A program made the position numbers and the translations under genes. Positions 11,730 through 22,562 of a DNA stretch of 27,628 nt are shown piece after piece. The notes below the pieces were generated by a model, which made no database searches, had not been told where the DNA came from, and saw only the letters and a list, made by a program, of their open reading frames with translations. Position 1 is the first letter of the stretch. Every line of letters starts with the position of its first letter. Origin of the DNA: a virus; the IMG/VR virus record IMGVR_UViG_3300032173_000006, positions 1 to 27,628 of that record, one strand, 5' to 3'.

Positions 11730-12529
11730 GCACACAATCCCTGGAGGCGTTCGCTGACGAACTCCAGAAGATGTCAGGCGCTGCGGACTTCCTCCGACAG
11801 GCCGGTCAGAAGTTGTTCTCCGGCGGCATCCAGAAGCCACTGAAGATGGGGCTGTCGGGCCTGGGCCGTATCGGCAAGGGCACCAAGACGCTACTCGGCG
11901 GCTCTGAGAAGATGGTGAACCGCGTCATGCACCCTATCGAAGGGCTGCGTGAAGGCTGGCGTGAATCCTCACCGCTCCCCGAGCTTGCTCGGAGGGCTAA
12001 AGAAATGGGCTTCGGTTCTCCTCAAGCGGCAGCTACAGCGTTGAAGTCCAACCCCAAGGCGTACAAGAAGCTGATGGCTGGTGCAGGAGAGCACCTGCTT
12101 GCTCCAACTGCTGATGCAGGTGCCCTTCGCAGAACTGCTGAGACTCTTTCTCGTAGTGGTTGGACTGGCGCCGGCGCTGGCACCAAGTACCTGCCTGTCG
12201 GCAGCAAGAGTCTCACTGTCGGTTTCGCGGGCATGGGCATCCCCGGTGTGGTGAATGCCGCCAAGCCGTCACCAACTGGGGAAGGTTCGACTGCGGAGAT
12301 GGGCCTTGGTGAGGGCGCTATGGGGCTGGCCAATGTACTGGCCACAGGAGGAGGGATCGGTCTCCTACCAGCTACGGTTGGCATTCTTGGAGCTCGAGCA
12401 GTTGGTTCTCGGCTCGGACGTGTTATAGACCGGATGCGAGCAGGGGCGAATGTTCGTCAAGCAGTCAATGCCCCTTCTCCGACTGAGGCCTCCGAGCAAC
12501 TGGAGAACGTCCAGAGGTACTACGGATGA
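11714..12529 (+). CDS. Gly-rich probable virion protein with N-terminal AFxDEL motif
   Basis: The protein is 271 residues, starting at GTG 11714 inside the end of the previous gene, with GAGGAA 9-10 bases upstream. The first 25 residues contain EAFADELQKMSGAADF. Nearly the same motif opens the gene after the portal (14550). The rest is rich in Gly, Ala and Pro. Segments such as VGFAGMGIPGVVNAA and LATGGGIGLLPATVGILGAR (about 205-240) are hydrophobic enough for a membrane or buried helix. The C-terminus is helical and polar. The stop overlaps the portal start as ATGA. An internal virion or ejection protein is a reasonable guess; no family was recognised. Confidence 0.75.
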   Translation: MGDPLSTQSLEAFADELQKMSGAADFLRQAGQKLFSGGIQKPLKMGLSGLGRIGKGTKTLLGGSEKMVNRVMHPIEGLREGWRESSPLPELARRAKEMGFGSPQAAATALKSNPKAYKKLMAGAGEHLLAPTADAGALRRTAETLSRSGWTGAGAGTKYLPVGSKSLTVGFAGMGIPGVVNAAKPSPTGEGSTAEMGLGEGAMGLANVLATGGGIGLLPATVGILGARAVGSRLGRVIDRMRAGANVRQAVNAPSPTEASEQLENVQRYYG

Positions 12530-14553
12530 TTGACGCCCTAACATTCGGCCCGGCTGGCGGCCTGCGGTTCTCGAGGAACACTGGCCGTTCCATGACCAGC
12601 GAGGCCTTGGGGGCTATTCGCTATCCGTCGCCGTTCTTCGACATCGCGCACACCTACTTGCCGTCGTCGTTCAAGACGATGCTCCGGTGGTGCCGCTACT
12701 ACTACCTGACGAATCCACTCGTGAATGCCGTCTGCACGAAGATGGCTGAGTACTCGGTCACCGATCTCATCTTCGATTCTGAGAACGAGCCTCTTCGCAG
12801 GCAGTGGGAGTACTGCTTCAGCACCGTTCTCAACTACAAGAAGTTCGAGGTGGAGGTCGGTCTCGACTACAACACCTACGGGAACGCCTTCGTCTCCTTG
12901 TCCTTCCCGTTCCAGAAGCTGCTCATCTGCAAGCACTGCCACAACATTGCCCGCATCGAGAAGCAGAAGTACATCTTCCGGGAGTACAAGTTTATTGGTG
13001 AGTGCCAGAAGTGCGGCAACCATCAAGAGTTCCAGGTCCGCGACCACTACATCCGATCGATTCGAGACATCCGGTTGGTGCGTTGGAACCCCGAGTACAT
13101 CACGGTCCAGCACAACGAAGCCACTGGAGAGAGTCGGTACTACTACGTCATCCCGCCGATGCTGGCGAACGACGTACGTATGGCCAAGCGCCACATCATC
13201 GAGCGCATCCCGCAGGTCTTCATGGAAGCACTGCGGCAGAACAAGGCCCTGCTCTTCAGTCGAGACAACATCTACCACATGAAGCGCCCCACCATCGCCC
13301 AGAAGGACAAGGGCTGGGGCATGCCAATGATCCTGCCGGTGTTGAAGGACGCCTTCTACCTGCAGGTTCTTCGCAAGGCGCAGGAAGCCATCGCCGTCGA
13401 GCACATCGTTCCACTCCGGCTGCTCTTCCCCCAGACAGCTTCTCCTGATGCGAGTGTCTACTCGACAGTCAACCTGACCCAGTGGCGCGACAAGATCGAG
13501 CAGGAGATCGTGCGCTGGCGCCTCGACAACAACTACATCCCGCTCCTCCCCATCCCCGTCGGGCAGCAGACACTCGGCGGTGACGGTCGCGCCCTCATGT
13601 TGGCGCAGGAGTACCGGGTGTGGTCGGAGCAGATCATCGCCGGTATGGGCGTGCCAATCGAGTTCGTCTACGGCGGTATGCAGTTCTCGGGCTCGAACGT
13701 CTCGATGCGAATCCTCGAGAACCACTTCCTCGACCAGAGAACCCAGCGGAAGCAGCTCGCCACCGACTTCATCATGCCCAACATCGCAGCATTCATGGGC
13801 TGGGAGACGGTGCCGTGCCACTACAAACGGTTCAAGATGGCCGACGATCTGCAGCGCAGCGCGCTGTACCTGCAGATGAACCAAGCCGGCAAGCTCTCTG
13901 ACAAGTCGATGCTCGAGGACATGGACTGGGATTCCGTCAAGGACGCCGAGATCATCTCCGTCGAGCAGAAGCGAGTGCTGGAGAACCAGCGCTCGCAGGC
14001 GCTTGCTCAGGCGGGCATTCAGGGTGAGGCCCAGCTCGTCCAGATCAAGTACCAGACCCGCGCTCAGAAGATCATGATGGAGCAGCAGGTCAGTGGTATC
14101 GACCCGAACGACCAGAAGATGCTCCAGCAGCAGGGCATGCAGGCAGCAGGTCAACCCGGCGTAGCCAGCCCGTCAGCGGTAGGCGCTCAGCAGAACGCGC
14201 AGGTCGGCCAGATGAATCAGGCGGGTCAGGTTCCCCCAATGGAACTGCCGCAAGGTCAAGAGCAGGGTCAAGACCAACCAGCCATGGCCGCTGGTGAGTC
14301 ACCGCTCGTTGCCAGCCAGCCGGCGCAGATGGACATCTTCACGGTGGCCAACCAAGTCGTAGGGTGGCTCAACCAACTGCCCGAGCATGAGAAACAGAAG
14401 AACCTCGTGCAGATGCAGAAGATGAATCCGCAACTCTACTCAATGGTTCTGCAGCTCTTGCAGCAGAGCCGTGGGGCCAACAAGAACTCGGCTGGTATGC
14501 CGCTCCCTGAGCAGCGTCCTCCGATGCGGGGCCCGGAGGCAGCGTCAGTATGA
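12526..14553 (+). CDS. Portal protein with inserted zinc ribbon
   Basis: The protein is 675 residues. It should form the dodecameric ring at the capsid vertex through which DNA passes. Portal-like features: an N-terminal clip/wing region with LRWCRYYYLTNPLVNAVC; the core DIRLVRWNPEYITV; a long helical stem part IEQEIVRWRLDN; the IIAGMGVPIEFVYGG strand-turn before MRILENHFLDQRTQRKQL; and a Gln-rich C-terminal tail from about residue 510. Unusually, residues 135-163 carry a zinc ribbon (C135-K-H-C138 and C160-Q-K-C163) followed by HQEFQVRDHY. The C-terminal 160 residues are Gln/Pro/Gly-rich and probably form the barrel end or are disordered. Both ends overlap neighbours (ATGA at start and stop), showing tight coupling with the Gly-rich proteins on each side. 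Confidence 0.85.
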   Translation: MIDALTFGPAGGLRFSRNTGRSMTSEALGAIRYPSPFFDIAHTYLPSSFKTMLRWCRYYYLTNPLVNAVCTKMAEYSVTDLIFDSENEPLRRQWEYCFSTVLNYKKFEVEVGLDYNTYGNAFVSLSFPFQKLLICKHCHNIARIEKQKYIFREYKFIGECQKCGNHQEFQVRDHYIRSIRDIRLVRWNPEYITVQHNEATGESRYYYVIPPMLANDVRMAKRHIIERIPQVFMEALRQNKALLFSRDNIYHMKRPTIAQKDKGWGMPMILPVLKDAFYLQVLRKAQEAIAVEHIVPLRLLFPQTASPDASVYSTVNLTQWRDKIEQEIVRWRLDNNYIPLLPIPVGQQTLGGDGRALMLAQEYRVWSEQIIAGMGVPIEFVYGGMQFSGSNVSMRILENHFLDQRTQRKQLATDFIMPNIAAFMGWETVPCHYKRFKMADDLQRSALYLQMNQAGKLSDKSMLEDMDWDSVKDAEIISVEQKRVLENQRSQALAQAGIQGEAQLVQIKYQTRAQKIMMEQQVSGIDPNDQKMLQQQGMQAAGQPGVASPSAVGAQQNAQVGQMNQAGQVPPMELPQGQEQGQDQPAMAAGESPLVASQPAQMDIFTVANQVVGWLNQLPEHEKQKNLVQMQKMNPQLYSMVLQLLQQSRGANKNSAGMPLPEQRPPMRGPEAASV

Positions 14554-15185: not shown

Positions 15186-15437
15186 TCACTGGAGCTTCCT
15201 CAGCCTGTACTTGCAGGCCGGGCACACTTGTTTGTGGATGAAGTTGAACTCCTCGCGAACTTGCTTCTGAACCTCTCCAACGATGACGTCGTTGCAGTGC
15301 TCGCGGAGGTACGCATCCAGACAAGTGCCTTGGCAGAAGTGTTTGGTTTGACCGCTGCGAGTGAGGCTGTCGGCAGAGCCAACAATCACCTCACCGCAGA
15401 GATCGCATCGGACCACCCCAGATTTTCCTACTCGCAT
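15186..15437 (-). CDS. Small zinc-finger protein
   Basis: The protein is 83 residues, with its ATG at 15437 overlapping the end of the upstream minus-strand gene by 10 bases. It has C11-D-L-C14 and, 20 residues later, HFCQGTC, a treble-clef-like four-Cys/His site. A second pair, CPAC, is near the C-terminus. A charged helix (GEVQKQVREEFNFIHKQ) joins them, and the tail is basic (KYRLRKLQ). Small zinc proteins of this kind often bind nucleic acid or modulate polymerases, but the target is not known. It is the last gene before the terminator at 15158-15175. Confidence 0.75.
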   Translation of the reverse strand: MRVGKSGVVRCDLCGEVIVGSADSLTRSGQTKHFCQGTCLDAYLREHCNDVIVGEVQKQVREEFNFIHKQVCPACKYRLRKLQ

Positions 15438-16015
15438 GGCGAGAGGTACTCTCGGTAGTCCGGCACGTCGGCCCTCTCAATCAGCCGCCAAAGTTCGATG
15501 TTGAGGTCATCCATGCAAAAGTAATGCAGGTGGCCGGTTTCGCTTGGGCGGTAGATCGAGAAGGGTCCTTTCGTGCTCGGCGTCATTTCACCTAGTTCGA
15601 TCAGTATCGCGCTTGACCAGTCTTCCAATGGGTAGGGCTCGATGACCTGAGAGCACAGGCAGCACTGGCCGTCTGCACTGAGTCCTTGGAGCCGGGACGA
15701 GAATCGTCTAGCGTCATCCGCGACGATGGAGTTGTCCCACGCGCACGTCATACACAACCACTTCACCTTCGAGTGGTCGTCGAACGGTAGCTCTATGAAC
15801 TCCGTTCCCCATTTTCGTTGTTTGACACAGCCGTGTCGTAGGCGAACAGCACTGGGCCCACCAAACTGCTCTTCGCACAACAAACAGCGGCCTATCAGTT
15901 CTGGTTCTGGCGCTTTGATGATCCTGGGCAAAGCTCTAGGCGCAACTCTAGGCTTGGCCGGCTGCGGTACGACGACTCTCGGCGTCGTTATGATTGCGGG
16001 TCTTCTGAAGTTCAT
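15428..16015 (-). CDS. Zinc-binding protein of unknown function
   Basis: The protein is 195 residues, starting at the ATG at 16015, which has AAGGAGA 7 bases upstream. An upstream in-frame TTG was not chosen. The first 40 residues are basic and Pro-rich (PRVVVPQPAKPRVAPRALPR), probably disordered. Three Cys clusters follow: RCLLCEEQ with HGC, WLCMTC, and QCCLCSQV. A final pair of Cys lies in YFCMDDLN and at the C-terminus. Arrangement suggests two zinc sites. The C-terminal part (LNIELWRLIERADVPDYREYL) is helical. It belongs to the reversed island between the portal block and the RNA polymerase. No family was recognised. Confidence 0.72.
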   Translation of the reverse strand: MNFRRPAIITTPRVVVPQPAKPRVAPRALPRIIKAPEPELIGRCLLCEEQFGGPSAVRLRHGCVKQRKWGTEFIELPFDDHSKVKWLCMTCAWDNSIVADDARRFSSRLQGLSADGQCCLCSQVIEPYPLEDWSSAILIELGEMTPSTKGPFSIYRPSETGHLHYFCMDDLNIELWRLIERADVPDYREYLSPCE

Positions 16016-16067
16016 GAATGAGTCTCCTTGCAAGGCCCACTACGAACCCCATGAGCAGCAGCCTCAT
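15948..16067 (-). CDS. Possible 39-residue hydrophobic peptide, overlapping gene
   Basis: An ATG at 16067 shares a base with the stop of the small acidic gene upstream (TGATG), which would allow coupled translation. The peptide begins MRLLLMGFVVGLARRLI, a short hydrophobic stretch followed by basic residues, and ends 39 codons later. It overlaps the start of the 195-residue zinc protein by 68 bases in another frame, and that gene has its own good ribosome site. This may be a real small membrane peptide or only chance. Confidence 0.25.
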   Translation of the reverse strand: MRLLLMGFVVGLARRLIHELQKTRNHNDAESRRTAAGQA

Positions 16068-16219
16068 CAGTTGGCCTCAACGTCCGTTCCAGCGTTGTCC
16101 TCCGTCTCGTCTTCGTGAGGCTGTTCCTCGGGCTCCGGTTCTGGGAAGCTCAAGAATCCTCCCACGAGATCGTTTTGGACGTCCTGCTGGAACATCTGCA
16201 TTGAGGTTGGGTTGCTCAT
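16067..16219 (-). CDS. Small acidic protein (50 residues)
   Basis: An ATG at 16219 with GGAGG 9 bases upstream opens a 50-codon frame. The peptide starts MSNPTSMQMFQQDVQNDLVGG and ends with a strongly acidic tail (PEPEPEEQPHEDETED). Codon structure and the good ribosome site support a real gene. It is the first gene of the minus-strand zinc-finger island. Its strong negative charge is like that of DNA-mimic or polymerase-binding peptides, but this is only a thought. Confidence 0.6.
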   Translation of the reverse strand: MSNPTSMQMFQQDVQNDLVGGFLSFPEPEPEEQPHEDETEDNAGTDVEAN

Positions 16220-16385
16220 TCTTCATTTCCTCCGTCGACAAGTTGGGTTAAGAGACGTATGGGCCCTTCACTTATCTTATGACGGGTTGCTGGCTGGACT
16301 TTCAGTGATGTAGGATGGCAAAACGTGGCATCTATCCACCGCTCAGGCGACCTAGCGTTGCCCACGACAGTGCTGGAGAGGGCTG
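16220..16385. promoter_or_regulatory. Divergent spacer upstream of the RNA polymerase gene
   Basis: This 166-base region separates the reversed island from the RNA polymerase gene and should hold promoters for one or both. On the plus strand TTGCTG (16287-16292) and TAGGAT (16311-16316) are 18 bases apart, a fair match to a sigma-70 promoter. A 23-codon frame (ATG 16315 to TGA 16386) ends in TGATG overlapping the polymerase start. No clear promoter was found for the minus strand. Confidence 0.4.
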
Positions 16386-19300
16386 ATGGCGCATTATTCA
16401 CCTGAAGAGGCATTCGAAAAGCTCAAGGAACGCACCGCTCAGACGATCCACAACTACTTCCCCATCGAGGGCAGGCAGCACACCCTCAGTGCGAAGAAGG
16501 TTTGGGTCGATGACAACAAGGGCGTTGACGACATCCGTGACCAGAAGGATGCCAAGGTCAAAGGCCGTAGCTGGACCGTTCCCATCCGGGCTGAGCTTGA
16601 GCTGAAGGACAACCTGACTGGCAAGGTTCTCGACCGCCAGGTGGTCAACGTCGCCCAGCTCCCCAAGATCACGCGCCGCTACAGCTACATCGTCAACGGC
16701 AACGAGTGGCAGGTGAACAACGTCTTCCGGATGAAGTCGGGCGTCTACACCCGAGTCCGAAAGAATGGTGAGCTCACTGCTCAGTGGAACCTGGCCAAGG
16801 GTCAGAACTTCCACATGGACTTCAACCCCAAGAACCAGAAGATGTCGCTCCGCTACGGCGAGGCGCAGATCCCGCTCTACCCTGTCCTCAAGACGATGGG
16901 CATCGACGACGACTCCATCGAGAGAGCTTGGGGAAAGGACATCTTCAGCGCCAACAAGTTGGTGACTGACGAGACTGCTCTTCGGAAGTTCTACAGGGCC
17001 ATCAAGGGGACCAACCCGGAGACGTTGGACAAGGCCAAGGAGCTGATTCACAAGGAGTTCGGTGAGTCGGTGTTACGTCCAGACTCCACGGCCCTCACGT
17101 TGGGTAAGCCCTACGACAAGGTCTCGGGGTCAGCTCTGCTCGATGGTTCGCACAAGATTCTCAAGGTCTCTCGTCAAGAGGTAGAGCCCGACGATAGAGA
17201 CTCGCTCCCGTTCAAGGAGCTCCACTCCGCAGAAGACCTCATCAACGAGCGTCTCGAGAAGTGGAAGACGGAGAAGGACGTCAAGCGGAAGATTGGCAAC
17301 ACGCTGGACAAGAACAGCAAGGTCCGAGACATCATCAACCCGGACATCTTTGGCAAGCCCTTGCGCCAGTTCTTCGTGAGCTCGGTCCTCTCTGAGCGGC
17401 CGACACAAACCAACCCCATCAGCTTCATCTCTGGCAACCGAAAGACCACGCTCTTCGCCCCAGGTGAGGGCGGCATCAGCTCGTCCCATCAGATCTCTCT
17501 CGAGGCCCAGTCCATCAACCCCAGTCACCTGGGTTTCCTCGATCCTATCCAGACTCCTGAGTCGGAGCGCATCGGTGTCACGCTGCAGCTCGCTTCCCAA
17601 GTGGTGAAGGACGGGCACGATCTCAAGATCCCAGTCTACAACGTGAAGACCGGCAAGCGGGACATGATCAACCCGCACCAAGCACTCAAGTCCAATCTCG
17701 CCTTCCCAGATCAGTACGAGTGGAAGGGTGGCAAGCCTGTGCCAATCAAGGCCAGCATCAAAGTCTCCGACCCAGAGGGTACGGTGACCGTGGTGAAACC
17801 CAGTGAGGTTGACTACGTCCTCGGCTCTAGCAAGGGCATGTTCGACTTGTCAGCGAACCTCATTCCATTCCTGCAGAACAACCAGGGCAACCGCACCATG
17901 GTTGCCTCTCGTCAGATCGAGCAGGCCATCGCCCTGAAGCATAGGGAGGCCCCTCTAGTTCAGACTCGAAGTGACAAGCCCACCCGCACGTTTGAGGAGG
18001 GCATCGGAGAGTTTGTCAGCCACACCTCTCCTGTCGCCGGCGTCATCGAGAAGGTGAAGAAGGACGCTGTCATCATCAAGGCAAAGAACGGTGACCGCCA
18101 CGAGGTTCAGCTCTACGATGACTTCCCCCTGAACGACGACAAGAGCGTGCTCAACAGCACCCCCATCGTGAAGGCGGGGGACACGGTGCATGCCGGTCAG
18201 GTGGTGGCCGACACCAACTTCACCAAGAATGGCACGCTGGCACTGGGCACCAATCTGAAGGTCGCCTACATGCCCTGGAAGGGCTACAACTTTGAGGACG
18301 GCATCGTCATCTCGGAGACCGCGGCTAAGAAGCTGACATCGGAACACCTCTTCCGAGAGAACATCACCTCCGAGAAGACCATCAACCTCGACAAGAAGAA
18401 GTTCCTCTCCTACATGGCCGGTAAGGTCACGAAGGACCAGGCAGAGAAGCTCGATGATGACGCGGTGATTCGGGAGGGTCAGGTTGTCAACAAAGACGAC
18501 GTGCTCCTGGGTATTCTCAAGGAAGAGACCATCACCCCGGACGAGCAGAAGCTCGGACTCTTCTCGAAGGGACTCATCCGTCCGTGGAAGCCTCGTGAGA
18601 TTCGCTGGACCAAGGACATCCCTGGTGTGGTTACCCGTGTTGTGAAGCACGGCAAGAACATAACGGTCTACGTTCGCGCTGAAGCTCCAGCCGACGTAGG
18701 TGACAAGATCGTCGGTCGCCACGGCAACAAGGGCATCATCACGAACATCATGCCCGACCATGAGATGCCGCAGGACAAGGACGGCGACCCGATTGAGGTC
18801 ATCCTGAATCCCACGGGCGTTCCTACCCGCATCAACTTGGGTCAGGTGTTGGAGACTGCCGCGTCCAAGATTGCGGAGAAGACAGGCAAGCCCTACATCG
18901 TCAACAACTTCGACCCCAAGGTACCCGACTACACCCGTAGCCTGAAAGAGGAGATGAAGCATCACGGGGTTTCGGATACGGAAGAGCTGCACGACCCCGT
19001 CACCAATAGCAAGTTCCCCAACGTCCTGGTCGGCAAGCAGTACATTCTGAAGCTGCACCACACGGCCGAGAAGGGTCTGTCAGTACGCTCACGTGACACC
19101 TACGACTCGAACATGCTGCCCGCCGGCGGCGGCCCGAAGGGCGGCCAGACGATGGACGCCATGGGCATGTACGCTCTGCTGGCGCACAACGCTCGCGAGA
19201 ACATCCGTGAGATGCAGACGTACAAGTCGGACATGAACGACGATTTCTGGGTCCAGCTTCAGGCAGGTGACTCCATCCCAACTCCGAAGGCACCCTTCGT

Positions 19301-22300
19301 GTTCAAGAAGTTCGAGGGCTACCTCAAGGGCATGGGCCTGGACATCCGCAAGGAAGGCAACGACCTCATCCTCCAGCCTCTCACGGACAAGAAGGTGTTG
19401 GAGATGAGCAACGGGGCACTGCCCGATGCGGGTCGTGCCCTGCGTGCGAAGGATGCCAAGGAAGAAGCTGGTGGCATCTTCGATCCTAAGATCACTGGCG
19501 GTGTGAAGGGCAAGAAGTGGTCGCATGTTCCACTGCCAGAGCGAATGCCGAACCCGGTGTTTGAGGGTCCCATCTCTGCTCTTCTTGGTCTGAACTCGAA
19601 CAGCTTCAAACGAGTAGTGACCGGGGAAGAGAAGCTCGGAGACAAGACCGGGCCTCAAGCGATCATCGACGCGCTCAAGGAGTTGGACCCGAAGAAGATG
19701 AAGAAGGAGGTCGAGACCAAGCTGCCTGACCTCCGCACCAACAAGCTCAATGACGCCAACAAGAAGCTCAAGTACCTCCGAGCACTAGAAAGCGCAGGTC
19801 TCTCTCCAGTCGAGGCCTACACGATGAAGCACCTGCCGGTGCTGCCACCTGTGTTCCGGCCCATCACGATTCTCGACAGCGGCGACATCAACTACGATGA
19901 CGTGAACCGACTCTACAACCACGTTGGTATGCTCAATCTGAAGTTCAAGGACTTCGACTCGGCTCTACCACCAGAGGAGAAGCTGCCGCTTCAGACGTCC
20001 CTTTACGACGGGCTCAAGGCAATCATGCTGACGGGCCAAGTCCACCAAGGGCGCCATCGCAACGCCATCATGCAGACCATCTCCGGCTCCAGCGGAGAGG
20101 GTGGGCAGCCGAAGGAAGGTTTCTTCCAGGACAAGATCATCGGCCGCCGGCAAGACCTGTCGATGCGTGGTGTTATCATCCCCGAGCCCTCACTCAGCTT
20201 GGACGAAGTGGGTCTGCCAAGGAAGGCCGCAACCGAGCTCTACAAACCCTTCATCGTACGCCGCCTGGTACAGCAGGGGCAGAAACCCCTCGATGCCCAG
20301 GAGATGGTGAAGAAGAACCATCCTGCGGCGCTCGAGGCTTTGAAAGCCGTGCTCGAAGAGCGACCCATCTTGCTGAAGCGTGACCCTGTGCTTCACAAGT
20401 TCGGAGTACAGGCCTTCAGACCCAAGCTGGTCGAGGGCAAGGCGGTGAAGATCCATCCGCTGGCAACCGCCGGCTACAACGCTGACTTTGATGGCGACAA
20501 GATGTCAGCCTTTGTCCCAGTCAGCCAGAAGGCAGTGAAGGAAGCATACAGGATGTTGCCTTCCTTCAACCTTTTCAGCCCTACGACTGGGCACCTCATG
20601 TCCAAGCCCTCCCAAGAATCTATGATGGGCCTCTACAAACTGACGGAGATCGACAAGAGGACCGCTCTCCGGTTCCCAACTGCTGCCGACGCTGCTCGCG
20701 CTGTGAAGGCTGGCAAGATCGGGATGAACGACCTCATCTCTCTCGACAACATCGAAGGTGATGCGTACACGGAGATGCTGAAAAAGGCGGCTCAGTCTGT
20801 GAAGACTACGGTCGGCCGACTCATGCTGTACCAATCACTGCCGGAAGAAGTACGTGAGCCTAAGCTGCTCACCGACACTGGCTACTTGCTGAACAAGGGC
20901 AACCTCTACGGGTTGCTCACCGACGTTGCGAAGCGGTCTCCAAAGGACTTCGGGTCGGTGTCTGACAGGTTCAAGGACATCGGCAACGAGTTTGCTACTG
21001 GCATGTCCATCGGGCTCGATGACTTCCTCTCGGACCATGTGCACCGAGACGAGGTCTTGAAAGACGCTGCTCGTAAGGAGCATGAGATTCGTGCCAGAGT
21101 GTCGAACCCGATGAAGCGAAAGGAAGAGATCGTCAAGCTCTACGTAGGAGCCGCTGAGAAGATCCACGCCGAGGCGAAGAAGAACGCCGACGGCAAGAAG
21201 AACCGCATGTATGATTGGGTTCGTTCAGGAGCACGCGGTAGCTGGTCGCAGTACAAGCAGATGACCGTGGCCCCCATGCTGGTCGCTGACTCGAAGGGCG
21301 AGCCAGTACCGATCCCGATTCCCAAGGCCTACTCAGAGGGCTTGGACATCGGTTCGTACTTCGCCTCGATGCACGGGGCCCGCATGGGAACCATCGGTCG
21401 CGTGCAGGGTACGCAAGCCCCCGGCAAGATGTCAAAGCAGCTCATCAACACCACGATGAACCAGATGGTAGTGGATGAGGACTGCGGAACCACAAAGGGC
21501 GTGGTGCTCCCCACTGACAACCGAGACGTGCTAGATCGCTTCACGGTCAGGGAGATCGACCTTGGCAACAAGGCAGGTCACGACAAGGGCAAGATTCCCG
21601 CAGGTGCACTGGTCACTCCTGACCTGCTCAACCGTCTGAAGAACAACAAGATCAACAAGATCGAGGTGCGTTCCCCTCTGAAGTGTGCCCACGGCAAGGG
21701 TCTGTGTGCCAAGTGCTATGGTCTGAACGAGGAGGGCAAGTTGCACTCTCCAGGCTCCAATCTCGGGGTGCTGGCAGCGCAGGCTCTCGGTGAGCCCGCC
21801 ACTCAGCTTGCGATGAACGCCTTCCACACGGGCGGTGTCGTAGGGGCGAAGGGCACCAGTGCGACAGGCCTGTTCAACCGACTGGAGCAGCTCCTCAACG
21901 TGCCCAAGAAGTTGCCTGGGGCAGCTACCCTGGCTGATGCTGATGGCAAGGTCAGTGACATCGAGAAGGACCCCGCCGGCGGCTGGCGTGTGCACGTGGG
22001 CGACAAGTCCCACTACGTTCCAGCCACACGTACCCTCACCGTGAAGAAGGGGGACGAGGTGAAGATGGGTGATGCTATCTCCGACGGACCAAAGAATCCG
22101 AGGGAGATGCTAGCCCGCACCAACATGAACGCGGTGCAGCAGTACCTCACCGACGAGATCTGGAATTCGTACAAGGACGAGGGCCCCGTGCGTCGCCGCA
22201 ATGTGGAGACCTTCGTTCGAGCCATGACCAATCTTAGTGAGGTCACCGACTCAGGTGACCATGAGACGCTGCTTCGTGGAGACCACGCAGCCACGTCGGA

Positions 22301-22562
22301 AGTCGTAGCTCACAACCGTAACCTGAAGCCTGGTCAGAAGCCGGTGCAGTACAAGCCGGTCCTGCAGGGTGTCAGCATGCTGCCGCTCGAGCTTCAGACG
22401 GACTGGTTGGCTCGGCTGCAGCACAAGAATCTGAAGGACACGATTCTCGATGCGTCTGCCGAAGGGTGGCGGTCTGTGCTACATAGCACGCACCCCATTC
22501 CGTCGATGGCATACGGCAAGGAGTTTGGAATGGGAACAGAGAAGGAACCCTGGCTGTACTAG
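16386..22562 (+). CDS. Single-chain RNA polymerase: fused beta and beta' subunits
   Basis: The protein is 2058 residues, a DNA-directed RNA polymerase in which both large catalytic subunits form one chain. The beta part (about 1-955) has the fork and rifampicin-pocket region TQTNPISFISGNR ... DPIQTPESERIGV (about 340-395), GYNFEDGIVISE (about 632-644), GDKIVGRHGNKGI with the catalytic lysines (about 771-784), NPTGVPTRINLGQVLE (about 807-822) and a C-terminal GGQTMDAMGMYALLAHNARE. A linker of about 100 residues leads to the beta' part: HLPVLPPVFRPI (about 1149-1160), RDPVLHKFGVQAFRP, the catalytic loop NADFDGD at 1365-1371 (three Asp for magnesium), SGARGSWSQYKQM, the trigger-loop region HGARMGTIGRVQG, a zinc site C1700/C1767/C1774/C1777, and GEPATQLAMNAFHTGG. 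The N-terminal zinc site of bacterial beta' is absent. E. coli beta plus beta' total about 2750 residues, so this is compact. The start has GGAGAGGG upstream. Confidence 0.95.
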   Translation: MAHYSPEEAFEKLKERTAQTIHNYFPIEGRQHTLSAKKVWVDDNKGVDDIRDQKDAKVKGRSWTVPIRAELELKDNLTGKVLDRQVVNVAQLPKITRRYSYIVNGNEWQVNNVFRMKSGVYTRVRKNGELTAQWNLAKGQNFHMDFNPKNQKMSLRYGEAQIPLYPVLKTMGIDDDSIERAWGKDIFSANKLVTDETALRKFYRAIKGTNPETLDKAKELIHKEFGESVLRPDSTALTLGKPYDKVSGSALLDGSHKILKVSRQEVEPDDRDSLPFKELHSAEDLINERLEKWKTEKDVKRKIGNTLDKNSKVRDIINPDIFGKPLRQFFVSSVLSERPTQTNPISFISGNRKTTLFAPGEGGISSSHQISLEAQSINPSHLGFLDPIQTPESERIGVTLQLASQVVKDGHDLKIPVYNVKTGKRDMINPHQALKSNLAFPDQYEWKGGKPVPIKASIKVSDPEGTVTVVKPSEVDYVLGSSKGMFDLSANLIPFLQNNQGNRTMVASRQIEQAIALKHREAPLVQTRSDKPTRTFEEGIGEFVSHTSPVAGVIEKVKKDAVIIKAKNGDRHEVQLYDDFPLNDDKSVLNSTPIVKAGDTVHAGQVVADTNFTKNGTLALGTNLKVAYMPWKGYNFEDGIVISETAAKKLTSEHLFRENITSEKTINLDKKKFLSYMAGKVTKDQAEKLDDDAVIREGQVVNKDDVLLGILKEETITPDEQKLGLFSKGLIRPWKPREIRWTKDIPGVVTRVVKHGKNITVYVRAEAPADVGDKIVGRHGNKGIITNIMPDHEMPQDKDGDPIEVILNPTGVPTRINLGQVLETAASKIAEKTGKPYIVNNFDPKVPDYTRSLKEEMKHHGVSDTEELHDPVTNSKFPNVLVGKQYILKLHHTAEKGLSVRSRDTYDSNMLPAGGGPKGGQTMDAMGMYALLAHNARENIREMQTYKSDMNDDFWVQLQAGDSIPTPKAPFVFKKFEGYLKGMGLDIRKEGNDLILQPLTDKKVLEMSNGALPDAGRALRAKDAKEEAGGIFDPKITGGVKGKKWSHVPLPERMPNPVFEGPISALLGLNSNSFKRVVTGEEKLGDKTGPQAIIDALKELDPKKMKKEVETKLPDLRTNKLNDANKKLKYLRALESAGLSPVEAYTMKHLPVLPPVFRPITILDSGDINYDDVNRLYNHVGMLNLKFKDFDSALPPEEKLPLQTSLYDGLKAIMLTGQVHQGRHRNAIMQTISGSSGEGGQPKEGFFQDKIIGRRQDLSMRGVIIPEPSLSLDEVGLPRKAATELYKPFIVRRLVQQGQKPLDAQEMVKKNHPAALEALKAVLEERPILLKRDPVLHKFGVQAFRPKLVEGKAVKIHPLATAGYNADFDGDKMSAFVPVSQKAVKEAYRMLPSFNLFSPTTGHLMSKPSQESMMGLYKLTEIDKRTALRFPTAADAARAVKAGKIGMNDLISLDNIEGDAYTEMLKKAAQSVKTTVGRLMLYQSLPEEVREPKLLTDTGYLLNKGNLYGLLTDVAKRSPKDFGSVSDRFKDIGNEFATGMSIGLDDFLSDHVHRDEVLKDAARKEHEIRARVSNPMKRKEEIVKLYVGAAEKIHAEAKKNADGKKNRMYDWVRSGARGSWSQYKQMTVAPMLVADSKGEPVPIPIPKAYSEGLDIGSYFASMHGARMGTIGRVQGTQAPGKMSKQLINTTMNQMVVDEDCGTTKGVVLPTDNRDVLDRFTVREIDLGNKAGHDKGKIPAGALVTPDLLNRLKNNKINKIEVRSPLKCAHGKGLCAKCYGLNEEGKLHSPGSNLGVLAAQALGEPATQLAMNAFHTGGVVGAKGTSATGLFNRLEQLLNVPKKLPGAATLADADGKVSDIEKDPAGGWRVHVGDKSHYVPATRTLTVKKGDEVKMGDAISDGPKNPREMLARTNMNAVQQYLTDEIWNSYKDEGPVRRRNVETFVRAMTNLSEVTDSGDHETLLRGDHAATSEVVAHNRNLKPGQKPVQYKPVLQGVSMLPLELQTDWLARLQHKNLKDTILDASAEGWRSVLHSTHPIPSMAYGKEFGMGTEKEPWLY

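What the first reader, a model, noticed from the sequence alone, without database searches (positions are those of the whole stretch)
16386..22562. Single-chain, compact, bacterial-type beta-beta' RNA polymerase encoded by a phage
Seen: all main beta and beta' catalytic motifs lie in order in one 2058-residue frame, with the NADFDGD loop at 1365-1371. Known: bacterial beta and beta' are normally separate (fused in Helicobacter and Wolbachia), and phiKZ-type phage polymerases are split in several chains and diverged. A fused and much closer-to-bacterial enzyme in a phage may be a distinct class of viral RNA polymerase. No alpha, omega or sigma gene is present in the window.
Basis: partly seen in the sequence, partly recalled or inferred. 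Interest (0 to 1): 0.88.

Follow-up and report, generated by a model that had tools for sequence, protein, structure and literature searches.

The report
Single-chain bacterial-type phage RNA polymerase
A tailed phage and dozens of its relatives encode a complete RNA polymerase of the bacterial type as one fused protein chain, paired with a phage sigma-like factor but no recognisable alpha or omega subunit; the polymerase lineage was already known, but I found no report that it is fused.

Summary
In detail: window 16386-22562 (+) is one uninterrupted 2058-codon frame carrying a full RpoB-like half followed, with almost no linker, by a full RpoC-like half. It is not an assembly accident: 46 other viral contigs encode the same fusion in one frame (18 with intein-sized inserts). 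A further 24 loci are re-split, always inside beta' and never at the beta/beta' junction, so the fusion is shared by the whole lineage. Catalytic residues are invariant in 33/33 phage sequences aligned. No bacterial sequence found exceeds about 32% identity, and bacteria form a separate branch, so recent host capture is rejected. Each of 15 long relatives (at least 167 kb) has one such polymerase and a sigma-70-like factor; alpha and omega are not detectable in any. In the cultured relative Salmonella phage Arash the polymerase pieces and that sigma factor were found in purified virions (PMC10585845). Best reading: a sigma-dependent single-chain core polymerase, packaged and injected. The lineage matches the RNAP-encoding Caudovirales "mReC" (Weinheimer & Aylward 2020), whose searched text does not report fusion for it. 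New variant of a known kind. Activity and packaging in this particular phage are inferred, not shown.

The parts
16386..22562 (+). Fused beta-beta' RNA polymerase gene, 2058 aa
   Evidence: open frame; Pfam and NCBIfam RNAP domains in order; 46 other contigs with the same fusion
16386..19382 (+). RpoB-like (beta) half, residues 1-999
   Evidence: alignment to Salmonella and Pontibacillus beta; AF2 model pLDDT 79, pTM 0.73, VIA-align Z about 30 to bacterial, cyanobacterial and plastid beta chains
19383..19445 (+). Beta/beta' junction, residues 1000-1020: the C-terminal end of beta runs into the start of beta' with almost no linker
   Evidence: alignments; residue listing
19446..22559 (+). RpoC-like (beta') half, residues 1021-2058; the N-terminal zinc ribbon (Zn1) is missing
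   Evidence: alignment; PDB profile search E 1e-202 to bacterial beta'; AF2 model pLDDT 77, pTM 0.41, Z about 31 to bacterial beta'
20478..20498 (+). NADFDGD Mg-binding loop, residues 1365-1371
   Evidence: aligned to E. coli D460/D462/D464; the three Asp are conserved in 33/33 phage rows
18705..18731 (+). Beta active-site lysines K774 and K782 (E. coli K1065, K1073)
   Evidence: conserved 33/33
18534..18572 (+). Flap-tip helix equivalent, residues 717-729 (bacterial sigma region 4 contact)
   Evidence: aligned to E. coli 896-908; helix 718-724 in the AF2 model
21483..21716 (+). Zn2 site cysteines C1700, C1767, C1774, C1777
   Evidence: aligned to E. coli C814/C888/C895/C898
21813..21827 (+). 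Trigger-loop segment M1810 to H1814 (E. coli M932 to H936)
   Evidence: His kept in 29 of 30 phage rows with letters
16375..16382 (+). Ribosome-binding-like GGAGAGGG upstream of the start codon
   Evidence: read directly
12526..14553 (+). Portal protein gene, 675 aa, upstream neighbour
   Evidence: 32% identity to Arash portal gp204, E 9e-88; homolog upstream on the same strand in 56 of 60 loci

Best explanation
The gene encodes a catalytically complete, single-chain bacterial-type core RNA polymerase (beta fused to beta') of a lineage of large tailed phages that very probably corresponds to the mReC phages. The fusion removes the need for an alpha dimer to bring beta and beta' together, and the enzyme is directed to phage promoters by a phage sigma-70-like factor encoded elsewhere in the genome. 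It is expressed from the structural-gene region, packaged in the virion with its sigma factor, and injected to start phage transcription; as the only such polymerase found in these genomes it probably also serves later in infection. Shown by computation: the fusion, its spread, intact active site, separate phylogeny, one copy per genome, co-occurring sigma-like gene, undetectable alpha/omega, portal-side location. Taken from a published proteome of a relative: virion association. Inferred: activity, sigma dependence, packaging and injection in this particular phage.
For: Single frame with all domains; 46 further contigs with the fusion in one frame. Catalytic residues invariant 33/33 and Zn2 kept. 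Both halves fold like bacterial beta and beta' in AF2 models (Z about 30 and 31). One beta' catalytic site per genome in 16/16 records. Sigma-like gene in 15/15 records of at least 167 kb by two independent searches. Alpha and omega 0/16 while controls ring 13/14 and 14/14. Sigma-contact residues on the clamp helices that are invariant in bacteria (R275, E295) are changed in most phage rows, which fits use of a cognate rather than host sigma. Portal gene upstream in 56/60 loci; terminase, head-protease-like and major head protein homologs lie downstream in the same record. In Arash, gp206 (3516 spectra, the most of any protein), gp216 and sigma gp10 are in purified particles (PMC10585845).
Against: No activity data exist for any member that I found. 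The Arash authors note that the enzymes could be carry-over from high expression. The sigma gene is not on the window's own 59.6-kb fragment. No phage promoter motif emerged from 126 upstream regions of the 192-kb relative. A divergent alpha or omega could escape the profiles. The beta' model has pTM 0.41 and rmsd about 12, so its domain arrangement is uncertain.
Confidence: 0.72

Rival explanations
1. Same single-chain polymerase, but a non-virion enzyme: it is made in the infected cell for middle or late genes, the host polymerase does early transcription, and its presence in Arash particles is carry-over.
For: The Arash authors offer this alternative. Only one copy per genome is found, unlike the virion/non-virion pairs of phiKZ-type phages.
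Against: The polymerase gave more spectra than the major capsid protein in Arash, and the polymerase gene sits by the portal in 56/60 loci.
Confidence: 0.25
2. Hybrid enzyme: the fused chain recruits host alpha and/or host sigma and omega.
For: No alpha or omega gene is found in the phage genomes; the flap-tip helix is retained.
Against: Sigma-contact positions that are invariant in bacteria have diverged; a phage sigma-like gene is always present in long records.
Confidence: 0.2
3. Recent capture of a fused host rpoBC gene of the Helicobacter or Wolbachia kind.
For: Same order, beta then beta', and the fused-gene models hit (601 and 569 bits).
Against: Generic rpoC plus rpoB models together score about 939 bits, far more than the fused models. 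The best bacterial match is 32% identity and top matches are Actinobacteria, Bacillota and Atribacteria. The phage rows form a 100* clade on a branch of 0.9-1.1 changes per site, apart from bacteria. Helicobacter and Wolbachia themselves were not in the tree.
Confidence: 0.02
4. Assembly artefact or decayed gene.
For: The source is a metagenomic contig; one related contig (L042) shows an in-frame stop.
Against: 46 other contigs carry the fusion. The L042 stop is one of four clustered G-to-T differences from an otherwise identical contig, L070, so most likely an error. Catalytic residues are invariant.
Confidence: 0.01

Closest known systems
mReC: multi-subunit-RNAP-encoding Caudovirales (Weinheimer & Aylward 2020, PMC7481178)
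   Same: Bacterial-like beta and beta' sequences with NADxDGD, in tailed-phage contigs from IMG/VR, forming a deep branch apart from cellular enzymes; polymerase genes surrounded by phage hallmark genes.
   Different: In the parts of the main text read or searched, fusion is mentioned only for crAssphage; no mention of sigma, inteins or splitting. Identity of the two sets by sequence could not be checked because the dataset was not available.
Salmonella phage Arash gp206 + gp216 (PMC10585845); Vibrio phages D69, D148, D181
   Same: Same family (31-35% identity over nearly the full length), portal-side location in Arash, gp10-type sigma factor conserved.
   Different: Beta' is split after the catalytic loop: gp206 is beta plus the N-terminal half of beta' and carries DYDGD itself (residue 1434), though annotated as 'beta'; gp216 is the rest of beta'.
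Fused RpoBC of Helicobacter and Wolbachia (NF007172, NF011417)
   Same: Beta then beta' in one chain.
   Different: 2839-2890-residue models against 2058 aa here; no special sequence affinity; a bacterial host gene that works with alpha and omega subunits (established knowledge).
phiKZ/AR9-type phage RNAPs (PMC7598289, PMC13282480)
   Same: Phage two-barrel polymerases without alpha and omega; virion form injected.
   Different: Those have 4-5 split chains, virion and non-virion copies, and no sigma recognisable by sequence; here one chain, one copy and a recognisable sigma-70-like gene.
crAss-like gp66, P23-45 gp64/gp96, YonO-type single-chain RNAPs (PMC10770324)
   Same: Both barrels in one polypeptide, phage-encoded, virion forms known.
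   Different: Those belong to a separate, highly divergent clade; this one aligns to bacterial rpoB/rpoC over both halves at about 30% identity.

Membership tests
mReC phage RNAP lineage | Both beta and beta' recognisable by cellular profiles, at least 800 aa each, with NADxDGD | tested here: met
   NCBIfam rpoC 543 bits and rpoB 396 bits, NADFDGD present; the COG models themselves were not available
mReC phage RNAP lineage | Phage clade separate from bacterial RNAPs | tested here: met
   Bacteria 100*, phage clade 100*; no archaeal or eukaryotic rows included
mReC phage RNAP lineage | Groups with the published mReC sequences | not tested
mReC phage RNAP lineage | Major capsid protein of the PF07068 family | tested here: inconclusive
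   0 of 16 records, but the control search rang nowhere; a phrog_2522 major head protein is present
mReC phage RNAP lineage | Tailed-phage hallmark genes around the polymerase | tested here: met
   Portal homolog upstream, terminase and major head protein in the same record
Helicobacter/Wolbachia-type fused RpoBC | Specific sequence affinity to those fused genes | tested here: not met
   Generic rpoC + rpoB models outscore the fused models; nearest bacteria are other phyla
phiKZ/AR9-type multisubunit phage RNAP | Beta and beta' each split into several chains, virion and non-virion copies | tested here: not met
   One 2058-aa chain; one catalytic beta' site per genome
crAss-like/YonO-type single-chain RNAP | Highly divergent two-barrel chain not readily alignable to cellular beta and beta' | tested here: not met
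   Aligns to bacterial beta and beta' over nearly full length at about 30% identity
Virion RNA polymerase (functional class) | Enzyme present in the particle and injected | not testable with these tools
   Only by analogy to the Arash proteome

The most novel reading that the evidence does not exclude
A deep phage lineage carries a one-chain core polymerase with a cognate sigma-70-like factor as its only transcription machinery, dispensing with alpha and omega, packaged as a ready-made two-protein holoenzyme; in one sub-lineage the fused chain was later cut again at new places inside beta'.
Probability: 0.4. Interest if true: 0.82.

Novelty: new variant of a known kind. Interest (0 to 1): 0.64.

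Why it matters
Bacterial core assembly normally runs through an alpha dimer. A natural one-chain core that keeps bacterial-type sequence and a sigma-like partner would be the simplest sigma-dependent polymerase of the cellular type that I know of: a tractable minimal enzyme, a test of what alpha and omega are needed for, and a possible source of orthogonal transcription tools. Its distance from all bacterial sequences found bears on the proposal that phages hold an ancient RNAP lineage. The fusion and its secondary re-splitting show that chain number in phage polymerases is evolutionarily fluid, and that 'beta' in the Arash annotation in fact holds the catalytic loop of beta'.

Tried and rejected
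Promoter motif search upstream of genes in the 192-kb relative (k-mers, spaced pairs, EM): only Shine-Dalgarno-like and polypyrimidine signals, likelihood barely above shuffled. I first read the beta flap tip as deleted; checking against E. coli numbering showed the deletion is elsewhere and the flap-tip helix is kept. AU test of whether all fused rows could be held on one side of a branch: p 0.07, so nesting of the split forms among fused ones is favoured by branch supports but not proven; the breakpoint evidence (never at the beta/beta' junction) is the stronger argument. PF04542 misses the phage sigma in the 192-kb relative; PF04539 and a direct homolog search find it. PF07068 capsid search uninformative. 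Rhizobium phage RHph_Y65, YerA41 and Carin-5 sit on very long branches and their placement is not trusted. BFVD fold matches are mostly to NCLDV polymerases at TM about 0.6 or less, weaker than the bacterial PDB matches.

Full report
Observation. Window 16386-22562 (+) is a single open frame of 2058 codons. Pfam finds beta domains (Rpb2_2, 3, 6) followed by beta' domains (Rpb1_1, 2, 3, 5); generic bacterial rpoB and rpoC models score 396 and 543 bits. NADFDGD is at 1365-1371. Against Salmonella, beta ends and beta' begins within about residues 1000-1020, so there is practically no linker.

Setting. The window is part of a 59,628-base viral record. A portal homolog (12526-14553) precedes the polymerase; terminase, a head-maturation-protease-like protein and a major head protein homolog lie downstream in the same record; primase, DnaB-type helicase, uracil-DNA glycosylase and another helicase lie on the opposite strand at the left. 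It is a tailed phage. A 192,137-base relative (G001) is largely collinear.

Not an artefact. A protein search plus a profile search of viral contigs gave 46 contigs, the window not counted, in which one frame covers the whole query: 28 of up to 2200 aa and 18 longer. Some of these contigs are near-identical to each other, so 46 is a count of contigs, not of independent lineages. Most of the long ones hold in-frame inserts that begin with Cys or Ser and end in Asn before Cys/Ser/Thr in many cases, i.e. inteins, at several of the most conserved sites; NCBIfam supports intein signatures in two of them. Another 24 loci are split: 12 after about residue 1453 (as in Arash) and 12 also or first at about 1081-1088. 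None is split at the beta/beta' junction. The apparent break in L042 comes from four clustered base differences from L070.

Evolution. In trees of 57 and 33 rows under LG+C20+F+G4, bacteria and the phage family are each one side of a 100* branch, 0.8-1.1 changes per site long. Split forms are one clade lying among fused forms, although holding all fused rows together is not firmly rejected (AU p 0.07). Because even the split forms keep beta joined to the start of beta', the fusion most likely predates the splits. The best bacterial match is 32% identity. Without archaeal rows the root is not addressed.

Active site and anatomy. In 33 phage rows the three beta' aspartates, R425, and beta K1065, K1073, R1106 (E. 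coli numbering) are invariant; Zn2 cysteines are kept, the trigger-loop His is kept in 29 of 30 rows with letters, and Zn1 is absent from the window protein. RIF-pocket positions differ (e.g. H526 to G350), which suggests, but does not show, rifampicin resistance. AF2 models of the halves match bacterial beta (Z about 30, rmsd about 4) and beta' (Z about 31, rmsd about 12, pTM 0.41).

Partners. Alpha (PF01193) and omega (PF01192) profiles find nothing in 16 records while controls ring. A sigma-like protein of G001 (P0008; Sigma70_r3 1e-10), homologous to Arash gp10, is found in all 15 records of at least 167 kb, by homology and independently by PF04539 (some of these under the curated cut-off). 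Each of the 16 records has one beta' catalytic site, the double matches being neighbouring pieces of one frame. Bacterial sigma-contact residues on the clamp helices are mostly not conserved.

Mechanism. In Arash, gp206, gp216 and gp10 are in purified particles, gp206 with the most spectra of all (PMC10585845). I therefore favour a packaged, injected, sigma-directed polymerase; the authors' alternative, carry-over, remains open. Nothing has been assayed.

Relation to the known. The mReC paper describes a deep-branching phage beta/beta' lineage with the same hallmarks; in the parts of it that I read or searched, fusion is attributed only to crAssphage. The Arash paper passages seen call gp206 'beta'. 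Other papers searched did not describe a fused bacterial-type phage enzyme. The library holds only open-licence papers, so prior mention elsewhere cannot be excluded.

Noticed in passing
L004, L005, L027, L033, L039, L049, L058, L062, L064, L069, L077, L078, L096, L102 and others, within the polymerase frame: Intein-sized in-frame inserts at many sites of the fused polymerase, including directly after NADFDGD, in the trigger loop and at GDK; L096 carries four and is 3596 aa long.
   Followed up: partly
G001: L018 9124-13548 (-) and L019 17686-20000 (+): The terminase of the 192-kb relative is 1474 aa against 618 aa in the window's record, and its helicase is also much longer; probably inteins there too.
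   Followed up: no
L106 415-8327 (Pontibacillus sp. ALD_SL1 plasmid NZ_CP062975.1): A plasmid carries its own rpoB, rpoC and rpoA in a row; in the tree its beta/beta' sits on a long branch at the base of the bacteria.
   Followed up: no
L002 2962-10013 (Vibrio phage D69): The polymerase pieces of this phage are annotated only as hypothetical proteins.
   Followed up: partly
L003 3962-8539 (Salmonella phage Arash gp206): Annotated as RNAP beta but contains the beta' catalytic DYDGD loop (residue 1434): it is a beta plus beta' N-terminal fusion.
   Followed up: yes
L011 20657-21694 (Arash gp196): A second sigma-70-like gene (Sigma70_r2) besides gp10.
   Followed up: no
L042 8061-8101: Four clustered G-to-T differences from the otherwise identical L070, one making an in-frame stop; looks like a sequencing or assembly error.
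   Followed up: yes
window 15186-16219 (-): Small genes on the opposite strand between portal and polymerase; two are conserved in G001 and have CxxC motifs.
   Followed up: no
L191 1817-8642 (Cobetia phage Carin-5): Another phage RNAP type with two large RNAP genes, apparently beta' then beta, next to a gene annotated as a sigma factor.
   Followed up: no
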